Shown one piece after another: positions 1 to 1,517 of a DNA stretch of 64,000 bases (its first letter is position 1; each line of letters starts with the position of its first letter). Made by a program: the position numbers and the translations under genes. The notes beneath the pieces are model-generated. The model had not been told where the DNA came from. It was given only the letters and a program-made list of their open reading frames with translations, and did no database searches. The stretch lies in assembly GCF_020329435.1 (NCBI RefSeq), contig NZ_JAGKJK010000023.1:1-64000 (forward strand), written 5' to 3'. Origin of the DNA: Bradyrhizobium hereditatis (GTDB lineage: Bacteria > Pseudomonadota > Alphaproteobacteria > Rhizobiales > Xanthobacteraceae).

Positions 1-128
1 CGGAACCAGGCGATCAGCGCCTCCGGCTCGCTCGCCACCTTGGCCTCGCGCAAAATCTTGCCGTTGGCATCAACAACACACACGCTCGAGCATTCCAATG
101 ACACGTCGATTCCGGCATAGTGGTTCAT
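1..128 (-). CDS. IS110-family transposase, N-terminal part (cut by window edge)
   Basis: The minus strand from the ATG at 126-128 encodes MNHYAGIDVSLECSSVCVVD and continues to the window edge, about 42 residues. The start (YAGIDVSLE followed by VCVVD) is the first strand and first catalytic Asp of the RuvC-like DEDD domain of IS110 transposases, enzymes that recombine DNA through a serine-containing C-terminal domain guided by an element-encoded RNA. Only the N-terminus is visible, so the DEDD triad, the Tnp_20 domain and intactness cannot be judged. The non-coding end of the element follows at about 129-310. Family assignment is firm; whether the copy is active is unknown. Confidence 0.85.
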   Translation of the reverse strand, partial: MNHYAGIDVSLECSSVCVVDANGKILREAKVASEPEALIAWF

Positions 129-201
129 GGTCGTCTCTCCTCGATGCTTGGAGCGAGGTCCGTCCTCGACTCCGTTTACACCATCAGTGTGAGGGACGAC
201 C

Positions 202-271
202 GCCTCCCAAGCCAGCCGCGCGACGCGCGCTACCACATTGCGCCGTAGCTAGCGCGGCTGGCTTGGGAGGC
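202..271. repeat. Perfect 20-bp inverted repeat in IS110 leader
   Basis: Arms 202-221 (GCCTCCCAAGCCAGCCGCGC) and 252-271 are exact reverse complements, separated by 30 nt. A second small hairpin, CCCGT (279-283) with ACGGG (294-298), follows. The arms could be subterminal repeats of the element or the stem of a structured transcript. They lie outside any supported gene. Confidence 0.75.
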
Positions 272-324
272 CTCGGGGCCCGTTACCCCATCTACGGGTT
301 CACGATTTCAACAGAGAGAAGAGC

Positions 325-1407
325 ATGACAACGCCCCTCGCCGCCAAGATCGCCCGCGAATACGGCACGCCGTGCGCCGTGATCGACATGGACCGGGTCG
401 AACGCAACATCGCCCGGGTCCAGGTCGCTTGCGACAAGGCCGGCGTCGCCAACCGGCCGCACATCAAGACGCACAAGAGCCCGATGCTGGCGCAGATGCA
501 GGTCGCGGCGGGCGCGAAGGGCATCACGTGCCAAAAGCTCGGCGAAGCCGAGGTGATGGCGGAGGCCGGGATCGACGATATCCTGATCAGCTACAATCTG
601 ATCGGCGAGGAGAAGATGGCCCGCCTCGCTGCGCTGCAGGCCAAGGCCACCATGACAGTCGCCGCCGACAATTCGGTCGTCGTCGCCGACCTGCCGAAAG
701 CCGCTGCTGCATCCGGGCGCACGCTCAACGTCGTGGTGGAATGTGACACGGGCCGCAAGCGCGCCGGTGTCGAAACGCCGGCCGAGGCGATTGCACTTGC
801 CCGTGAGATCGCTGGCTCCAAGGGACTGCAGTTTGCAGGCTTCATGCTCTACCCAACCGAGACCGGCTGGGCCGAGGCGCAAAAGTTTTTCGACGAGGCG
901 CTGGCCGGCGTCCGCGCGCATGGGCTTGATGCTGCGATGGTTTCAACCGGCGGCTCGCCGAACCTGAAGAACCTCGGCAAGCTCAAGGGCGCGACCGAGC
1001 ATCGGCCTGGCACCTATATCTATAATGACCGCATGCAGGTCGCTGCCGGCGTCGCCGAATGGGATGATTGCGCGCTCAACATCTACTCCACGGTGGTCAG
1101 CCGCGCTGGGCCAGAGCGCGGCATTCTCGACGCCGGCTCGAAAACGCTGACCTCGGATCCGGGCGGCGGGCTCGACGGTTACGGGCTGATCCTGGAGCAT
1201 CCGGAAGCCAAGATCGCGCGCTTTGCGGAAGAGCACGGCTTTCTCGACCTTACCCGCAGCAACACGCGGCCCAATGTCGGTGACGTCGTGCGGATCGTGC
1301 CCAACCATGTCTGCGTCGTCGTCAACATGATGGACGAGGTGGTAATGGTGCGCGGCGAGGAGATCATCGGCACGCTGCCGGTCGCGGCAAGGGGGAAGTT
1401 GCGGTAG
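325..1407 (+). CDS. DSD1-family PLP enzyme (D-threonine aldolase / D-serine dehydratase-like)
   Basis: A 360-residue fold-type III PLP enzyme with an alanine-racemase-like N-terminal barrel. PLP-lysine motif RPHIKTHK lies at about 45-51 (K48 predicted to bind PLP) and the C-terminal metal motif PNHVC at about 326-330 (H328 and C330), the pair that holds the divalent metal in D-threonine aldolases and eukaryotic-type D-serine dehydratases. The expected reaction is cleavage or dehydration of a D-beta-hydroxy amino acid (D-threonine, D-serine or D-3-hydroxyaspartate) in the cytoplasm; the sequence does not say which. Length is normal. The start at 325 has AGAGAAG about 8 nt upstream. It stands alone between the IS110 end and a convergent flavoprotein gene. 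Confidence 0.85.
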   Translation: MTTPLAAKIAREYGTPCAVIDMDRVERNIARVQVACDKAGVANRPHIKTHKSPMLAQMQVAAGAKGITCQKLGEAEVMAEAGIDDILISYNLIGEEKMARLAALQAKATMTVAADNSVVVADLPKAAAASGRTLNVVVECDTGRKRAGVETPAEAIALAREIAGSKGLQFAGFMLYPTETGWAEAQKFFDEALAGVRAHGLDAAMVSTGGSPNLKNLGKLKGATEHRPGTYIYNDRMQVAAGVAEWDDCALNIYSTVVSRAGPERGILDAGSKTLTSDPGGGLDGYGLILEHPEAKIARFAEEHGFLDLTRSNTRPNVGDVVRIVPNHVCVVVNMMDEVVMVRGEEIIGTLPVAARGKLR

Positions 1408-1426: not shown

Positions 1427-1517
1427 TTCGTAGGATGGGTAAAGCGCAGCGAAACCCATCATCCATCAGCTCGGCAATTCCCGATGGGTTTCGCTCCGCT
1501 CTACCTATCTTACGAAT
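1427..1517. repeat. Intergenic palindromic repeat, family A (CGTAGGRTGGG type)
   Basis: Left arm begins CGTAGGATGGGTAAAGCG and the right arm is its imperfect reverse complement ending CTATCTTACGA, with another inverted pair (AAACCCATC / GATGGGTTT) inside. A related copy lies at 35655-35751. It overlaps the last codons and stop of the flavoprotein gene that ends at 1510, so that gene's C-terminus derives partly from the repeat. Confidence 0.7.

What the first reader, a model, noticed from the sequence alone, without database searches (positions are those of the whole stretch)
1..310. IS110 end with probable bridge-RNA region
The transposase starts at 128 and about 180 nt of non-coding, structured DNA (perfect 20-bp inverted repeat 202-221/252-271, hairpin 279-298) separates it from the next gene. 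IS110-group elements are known to encode a guide (bridge) RNA upstream of the transposase, of about this length. The target and donor loops of this copy, if present, would be in this stretch.
Basis: partly seen in the sequence, partly recalled or inferred. Interest (0 to 1): 0.55.

Follow-up and report, generated by a model that had tools for sequence, protein, structure and literature searches.

The report
RNA-guided jumping gene's leader end
The stretch is the front end of a known kind of RNA-guided mobile element; its guide RNA lies at the opposite end, outside the window, and the structured DNA seen here most likely limits how much transposase is made.

Summary
The transposase ATG is at 128 (minus strand) and the perfect 20-bp inverted repeat lies inside the element. 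Five copies in this genome, plus host repeats uninterrupted at the same place in 3 of 12 relatives read, put the element end at the AG/CT core, 292-293. The element is IS1111-type: 10-bp subterminal inverted repeats, 7- and 3-bp extensions, 165 nt of non-coding DNA upstream of the transposase and 251 nt downstream. The guide RNA lies downstream, outside the window: a 9-nt guide changes with the target (15 of 20 distinct guide/target pairs have at least 8 of 9 Watson-Crick pairs; 0 of 20,000 permutations reach the observed mean). The upstream region shows no such signal (0 of 26 elements, against 24 of 26 downstream). Targets are GTAG tags of palindromic host repeats (REPs), a target type already in print for IS1111. 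The structured upstream region is best read as a transposase mRNA leader that buries part of the ribosome-binding site, as reported for ISPpu9 (inference). Side result: eight short palindromes in 5 of 265 genomes consist of two facing upstream ends; at two sites here they replace a host repeat. New member of a known kind.

The parts
1..128 (-). 5' part of the transposase gene (about 42 codons; the contig ends inside the gene)
   Evidence: Open frame. The 42-aa fragment matches DEDD_Tnp_IS110 (21 bits, cut-off 29) and NCBIfam IS110 (19.9 bits, cut-off 140), below both cut-offs; a 321-aa product of the C61 copy passes them.
129..293 (-). Upstream non-coding region (transposase leader), 165 nt
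   Evidence: Boundaries; fold z -7.65
202..271 (-). Terminal hairpin: perfect 20-bp arms 202-221 and 252-271
   Evidence: compensatory changes at 7 of 18 positions among 13 distinct elements of the main type
191..201 (-). Segment GGTCGTCCCTC predicted to pair with the ribosome-binding-site region
129..142 (-). Shine-Dalgarno stretch and spacer before the ATG, partly paired in the predicted leader
277..286 (-). Left subterminal inverted repeat GTAACGGGCC
   Evidence: partner GGCCCGTTAC at the other end (L010, L011, L012, L005)
292..293 (-). AG core dinucleotide at the element end
   Evidence: Shared by left junction, right junction and target
294..295 (.). Remaining outer two bases (GT on the minus strand) of the host repeat's GTAG tag
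1430..1513 (.). Uninterrupted two-armed host repeat of the target family
   Evidence: Left arm GTAGGATGGGTAAAGCG with one mismatch; both arms read (right arm diverged: CTTAC)

Best explanation
Window 1-293 is the upstream (left) end of an IS1111-type RNA-guided insertion sequence of about 1.46 kb. The guide RNA is made from the 251-nt region downstream of the transposase, outside the window. Its target loop carries a 9-nt guide complementary to host DNA just right of the AG core and a CGTAG segment matching the left side; two further segments match the element's own ends (donor). The recombinase inserts at GT|AG of GTAG-tagged palindromic REPs. In the excised circle a TTGACN hexamer of the right end would lie 17 nt from GAAGAT at the joined core and left end; this probably drives transcription through the 165-nt leader seen here. 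The leader folds into a terminal hairpin plus a helix that buries part of the ribosome-binding site, keeping transposase synthesis low. Shown: boundaries, inverted repeats, guide/target covariation, covariation of the downstream RNA structure, uninterrupted target repeats at the orthologous place. Inferred: expression of the RNA, the junction promoter, and translational control by the leader.
For: Protein family. Boundaries from 5 left ends and 4 right ends in this genome and 6 full copies in G054. Of 64 loci tested, 49 gave a guide and a target; 15 of 20 distinct pairs have at least 8 of 9 Watson-Crick pairs; mean over 10 guides 7.65 against 4.18 permuted, 0 of 20,000. In 26 distinct elements with both regions in hand, a match of at least 8 of 9 to the own target occurs downstream in 24 and upstream in 0; upstream is no better than permuted (2318 of 5000 permutations reach it), downstream is (0 of 5000). 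Named genomes: 7 of 10 loci with a readable pair reach at least 8 of 9, four of them with one and the same guide. Downstream RNA: 11 of 36 predicted pairs have a compensatory change. Target repeats at the orthologous place. TTGAC at 17-nt spacing in 32 of 33 (the left-end letters were typed in, and are invariant in 27 of 27 leaders). Leader. ISPpu9 precedent PMC8450116, abstract and passages.
Against: Five of 20 distinct pairs fall below 8 of 9: L080 4, L101 5, L107 6, L105 7, L070 7. 15 of 64 loci gave no pair by the anchors used; in named genomes 20 of 30 gave none and three of ten scored 6, 2 and 2. By energy alone the downstream region is less extreme than the upstream one (z -2.47, 3 of 200 shuffles as stable). 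The ribosome-binding-site helix is nearly invariant, so covariation says little about it; on the 27-leader alignment only 2 of 36 pairs are compensatory. No sigma-70-type site in window 1-420. No expression data. The window copy's own right end is not assembled; its RNA is taken from the other copies in this genome.
Confidence: 0.93

Rival explanations
1. One reading: an IS110-group element whose bridge RNA is encoded in 129-310, upstream of the transposase.
For: The region is inside the element and strongly structured; IS110-group elements do carry the RNA in the left end (PMC11208160, passages).
Against: No target-tracking segment upstream (0 of 26 elements) while the downstream region tracks targets; subterminal inverted repeats and the longer downstream region mark IS1111.
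Confidence: 0.02
2. The upstream region encodes a second, regulatory RNA (an antisense RNA like Asr9 of ISPpu9), and the hairpin belongs to that RNA rather than to an mRNA leader.
For: ISPpu9, also REP-inserted, has an antisense RNA over its transposase leader (PMC8450116, abstract and passages); an inverted repeat folds on either strand.
Against: No sigma-70-type promoter found on either strand of 1-420, a weak test in this genus; the conserved segments sit at the ribosome-binding site of the sense strand.
Confidence: 0.2
3. The 20-bp hairpin acts as DNA or as an insulator: it blocks read-through into the transposase, or forms a cruciform at the end used by the recombinase.
For: It lies next to the subterminal repeat and keeps its pairing while its sequence changes.
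Against: In three plasmid relatives (Ensifer, Rhizobium) only a small hairpin, seen by eye, takes its place; L057 lacks the hairpin but keeps the end and the transposase start, so it is not strictly needed for the end to exist.
Confidence: 0.25
4. The solo palindromes are a mobile miniature element (MITE) moved by the recombinase, not collapsed pairs of insertions.
For: The two copies in this genome are identical over 114 bp, and both ends carry a left end at a GT|AG site.
Against: They have no right end, so a circle of one would lack half of the donor sequence that the guide reads (inference). Six of eight match the leader of a resident element of the same genome, and junctions differ (L186, L190), which points to separate local origins.
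Confidence: 0.25

Closest known systems
IS1111 family with downstream seekRNA (ISEc11, ISPa11, ISKpn4, ISPst6; PMC11187229, first of nine parts read plus passages)
   Same: DEDD transposase, subterminal inverted repeats, 7- and 3-bp extensions, downstream RNA, top-strand complement before bottom-strand match, natural redirection of the target (ISEc11/ISXne4)
   Different: 10-bp repeats (usual 11-13); a long structured upstream region as well; a series of guides following several REP types within one genus
IS1111 of Coxiella burnetii in GTAG REPs (PMC5896051, passages)
   Same: Inserts into GTAG repetitive extragenic palindromes; the paper also notes IS1111 copies and a related palindromic stem in Bradyrhizobium and Rhodopseudomonas
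   Different: That paper describes the stem as a MITE relative; here a palindromic hairpin is part of the element's own left end, and guides are matched to targets
ISPpu9 (PMC8450116, abstract and passages)
   Same: REP target with AG repeat; long transposase 5'-UTR with a structure that likely covers the ribosome-binding site; an RNA downstream of the transposase
   Different: Antisense RNA Asr9 not shown here; leader 165 nt against a 244-nt 5'-UTR
IS621 / IS110 group (PMC11208160, passages)
   Same: Bridge RNA with target and donor loops; REP targets; CT core (AG on the other strand; CT core recalled)
   Different: RNA in the left end, upstream of the recombinase gene; only 2-3-bp subterminal repeats
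GTAG-tagged REPs of bradyrhizobia (PMC3733652, passages)
   Same: GTAG-tagged palindromes occurring as head-to-head dimers: the host target
   Different: Host repeat, not part of the element

Membership tests
IS1111 family | IS110-type DEDD transposase with Transposase_20 domain | tested here: met
   C61 copy, 321 aa: PF02371 6e-21, PF01548 5.6e-7, NF033542 215.8 bits against cut-off 140. Catalytic residues not checked one by one.
IS1111 family | Subterminal inverted repeats with 7-bp left and 3-bp right extensions | tested here: met
   GTAACGGGCC / GGCCCGTTAC, perfect 10 bp, AGATGGG and AGA outside them; shorter than the usual 11-13 bp, within the 7-17 bp range
IS1111 family | Longer non-coding region downstream of the transposase | tested here: met
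   251 nt downstream, 165 nt upstream
IS1111 family | Guide RNA downstream, top-strand complement before bottom-strand match | tested here: met
   expression not testable here
IS1111 family | Circular intermediate with abutted ends | not testable with these tools
   Only the predicted junction promoter spacing was looked at
IS110 group (sensu stricto) | Bridge RNA in the left end, upstream of the transposase | tested here: not met
   No target match of 8 of 9 or better upstream in 0 of 26 elements
IS110 group (sensu stricto) | No long subterminal inverted repeat | tested here: not met
   10-bp perfect repeat present
ISPpu9-type leader control | 5'-UTR structure covering the ribosome-binding site | tested here: inconclusive
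   Predicted and kept in the 27-leader alignment, nearly invariant; no expression test
ISPpu9-type leader control | Antisense RNA over the leader | tested here: inconclusive
   No sigma-70-type site in 1-420; weak test
GTAG REP (host target) | GTAG tag at the arm of a palindrome | tested here: met
   Insertion at GT|AG; uninterrupted two-armed repeats in relatives; 70 arm matches at up to one mismatch in this genome, control pattern 0

The most novel reading that the evidence does not exclude
One RNA-guided element lineage follows GTAG REPs across a bacterial genus by changing mainly the 9-nt right-hand guide, because its targets share the GTAG tag that the left match reads. Where both arms of a head-to-head REP dimer are hit, the facing copies collapse into a short palindrome of two left ends, so that the element turns host REPs into new palindromic repeats.
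Probability: 0.5. Interest if true: 0.55.

Novelty: new member of a known kind. Interest (0 to 1): 0.38.

Why it matters
It moves the search for this element's guide to the correct end and gives a natural series of guide/target pairs that can be tested directly. It ties together three things usually studied apart: the GTAG tag of REPs, guide retargeting, and leader control of the transposase. The solo palindromes suggest one route by which REP-like palindromes could arise from mobile-element ends.

Tried and rejected
Rejected: that the element ends before 202 (five copies share sequence to 293 and beyond to CTAC). Rejected: that the 279-298 hairpin is a feature (it uses host flank). Considered first and dropped: that the 114-bp palindromes in C35 and C7 are the host target into which the element inserted; right-end flanks and relatives show that the target is a different, GTAGGATGGGT repeat. 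Dropped for the solos: copying back at the hairpin (template switching), because the two outer flanks are not inverted copies of each other.

A first hairpin covariation count used a faulty register and lay inside the shuffled range (188 paired cells, shuffle mean 174.9, maximum 191). with exact inner anchors replaces it: of 28 leaders, 18 are of the main type (13 distinct), 9 have another hairpin and were not counted, 1 (L057) was skipped; one counted row (L093) is still out of register; a slid control was written but did not run. Its shuffles do not keep relatedness. No Rfam hit in the window. Search for the expected intermediate, two facing copies around one host repeat: 0 of 265 genomes, with an exact pattern and with many assemblies that break at these copies.

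Paper searches were seen as listings; passages were read of PMC11208160, PMC8450116, PMC11187229, PMC1525189, PMC3733652, PMC5082802 and PMC5896051. I saw no account of the solo palindromes in those listings and passages; that is not proof of absence.

Full report
Observation. The window starts inside an insertion sequence. The transposase ATG lies at 128-126 on the minus strand and the arms 202-221 and 252-271 are exact reverse complements. The next gene starts at 325. Folded as RNA, 126-293 has z -7.65, none of 200 shuffles being as stable. The window is contig C16 of a 7.87-Mb genome in 61 contigs. In named genomes the rows with the highest transposase identity (85-86%) are Bradyrhizobium, so the host is probably of that genus (inference).

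Boundaries. In this genome window 1-298 or parts of it recur at the start of C23, C46, C57 and C61. All five left ends share sequence up to ...CCCCATCTAC and then diverge. The far end was found at C61, C14 and both ends of C1. In transposase orientation the junctions read GT-AG-ATGGGGTAACGGGCC at the left and GGCCCGTTACAGA-AG-target at the right. Six copies in the complete genome G054 show the same two ends. The core shared by both junctions and the target is AG, window 293-292. The element therefore includes the 202-271 repeat, and its upstream non-coding region is 165 nt; the downstream one is 251 nt. The C61 copy spans 1375 bp and lacks 82 bp (window 64-145, with the start codon), so the full element is about 1.46 kb.

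Family. A 321-aa transposase product of C61 matches DEDD_Tnp_IS110 and Transposase_20 and NCBIfam IS110. Perfect 10-bp subterminal repeats with 7- and 3-bp extensions and a longer downstream region are marks of the IS1111 family as described in PMC11187229 (first of nine parts of the text) and PMC11208160 (passages); the repeats are a little shorter than the usual 11-13 bp.

Where the guide RNA is. A search of 265 genus genomes with the downstream region of the G007 copy matched 79, many only weakly. I tested 64 loci: 49 gave both a guide and the 9 nt right of the core, 15 gave none. Of 20 distinct pairs 15 have at least 8 of 9 Watson-Crick pairs; the others are L080 (4), L101 (5), L107 (6), L105 (7) and L070 (7). 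The mean over 10 distinct guides is 7.65, against 4.18 with guides permuted, 0 of 20,000 reaching it. Examples: this genome TTACCCATC with GATGGGTAG (8 pairs and one G-U); G054 TTGCCCACC with GGTGGGCAA; G007 TCATCCGGG with CCCGGATGG; L075 TCATGCGGG with CCCGCATGA, a single compensatory change. The left match CGTAG is the commonest form in the RNA and the flank usually reads GTAG. Segments matching the element's own ends (ACCCCATC, and GTACAGAAG) follow further downstream. RNAalifold on 33 such regions gives 36 pairs, 11 with a compensatory change, the target guide lying inside a closed loop. By energy alone this region is less striking than the upstream one (z -2.47, 3 of 200 shuffles as stable).

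Direct comparison. In 26 distinct elements with both regions in hand, a match of at least 8 of 9 to the own target is found downstream in 24 and upstream in 0. Upstream regions do no better with their own target than with permuted ones (2318 of 5000 permutations reach the observed mean); downstream regions do (0 of 5000). In named genomes 32 loci were fetched and 30 examined; 10 gave a readable pair and 7 of these reach at least 8 of 9, four of the seven with the same guide; L201 (6), L202 (2) and L205 (2) do not.

Target. Of 24 relatives fetched for the window flank I read 12; 3 (L122, L123, L125) carry a two-armed repeat, GTAGGATGGGT...ACCCATCCTAC, at the place where the element sits here. 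This genome has 70 matches to one arm at up to one mismatch, and none to the reversed control pattern; an uninterrupted, somewhat diverged copy lies at window 1430-1513. GTAG-tagged REPs with head-to-head dimers are described for bradyrhizobia (PMC3733652, passages). That IS110-type elements hit REPs (PMC1525189, passages), and that IS1111 of Coxiella inserts into GTAG REPs (PMC5896051, passages), is known; the latter also mentions IS1111 copies with a palindromic stem in Bradyrhizobium.

What the stretch does. In the 27-leader alignment GGTCGTC and CT pair with the segment between the Shine-Dalgarno and the ATG, 25 to 27 of 27 keeping each pair; it is nearly invariant, and only 2 of 36 consensus pairs are compensatory. 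The 20-bp hairpin changes sequence but stays paired: 7 of 18 positions with a compensatory change and 220 of 234 cells paired, against a shuffle mean of 203.6 and maximum of 217 (0 of 2000), in 13 distinct elements of the main type; 9 of 28 leaders have another hairpin and were not counted. In three plasmid relatives (one Ensifer, two Rhizobium) a small hairpin, seen by eye, stands in its place while the ribosome-binding-site segments are kept. Across the joined ends of a circle TTGACN lies 17 nt from GAAGAT in 32 of 33, a plausible junction promoter. ISPpu9, another REP-inserted element, has a 5'-UTR whose structure limits transposase translation, an antisense RNA upstream and an RNA downstream (PMC8450116, abstract and passages). 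I therefore read the stretch as a translational leader; this part is inference.

Solo palindromes. C35 and C7 of this genome each carry a 114-bp palindrome made of two facing left ends. A pattern search found eight in 5 of 265 genomes. Eight of eight have GT|AG on the left and seven of eight CT|AC on the right (L189 differs). Six of eight match the leader of a resident element of the same genome: exactly over 92 nt in G000 (two solos), 100 and 93 nt in G109, and to the fourth mismatch at 82 and 79 nt in G116; the G281 solo matches the one G281 leader tested over 18 nt only, and no leader of G280 was in hand. In L186 the match runs past the hairpin, so junctions differ. In G019 the C35 site is a complete two-armed host repeat with both flanks recognisable (1 of 13 relatives read; two more have fragments), and at the C7 site at least five of 13 have one. 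The simplest account is two facing insertions at the two arms of one REP dimer, then deletion between them. The intact intermediate was not found (0 of 265).

Verdict. Real, well bounded and of a known kind. The guide RNA is elsewhere; the added value is the natural guide series, the leader and the solo palindromes.

Noticed in passing
G000:C35:314021-314134 and G000:C7:55685-55798 (L193, L188); also G109, G116, G280, G281 (L186, L187, L189-L192): Short palindromes built of two facing left ends; at C35 and C7 relatives have a two-armed host REP in the same place.
   Followed up: partly
L059 and L060 (G047): About 17-20 nt of the left end fused directly to the right arm of the target repeat: apparent scars of imprecise loss of the element.
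   Followed up: no
L005:1238-1239 (C61 copy): 82-bp internal deletion that removes the start codon; the rest of the frame stays open from a TTG.
   Followed up: no
L057 (G054): Copy whose leader lacks the whole hairpin and the GGTCGTC segment (92-nt leader) but keeps the transposase start: a natural test of the leader's role.
   Followed up: no
L206-L209, L213-L215, L219, L220, L222: More distant alphaproteobacterial relatives show, by eye, GTAGTG or GTAATG in the downstream RNA against CACTAC, CATTAC or similar right of the core, suggesting the same guide logic.
   Followed up: no
L080 (G281): Target register appears shifted by two bases (extra CC after the core), which lowers its fixed-register score.
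   Followed up: no
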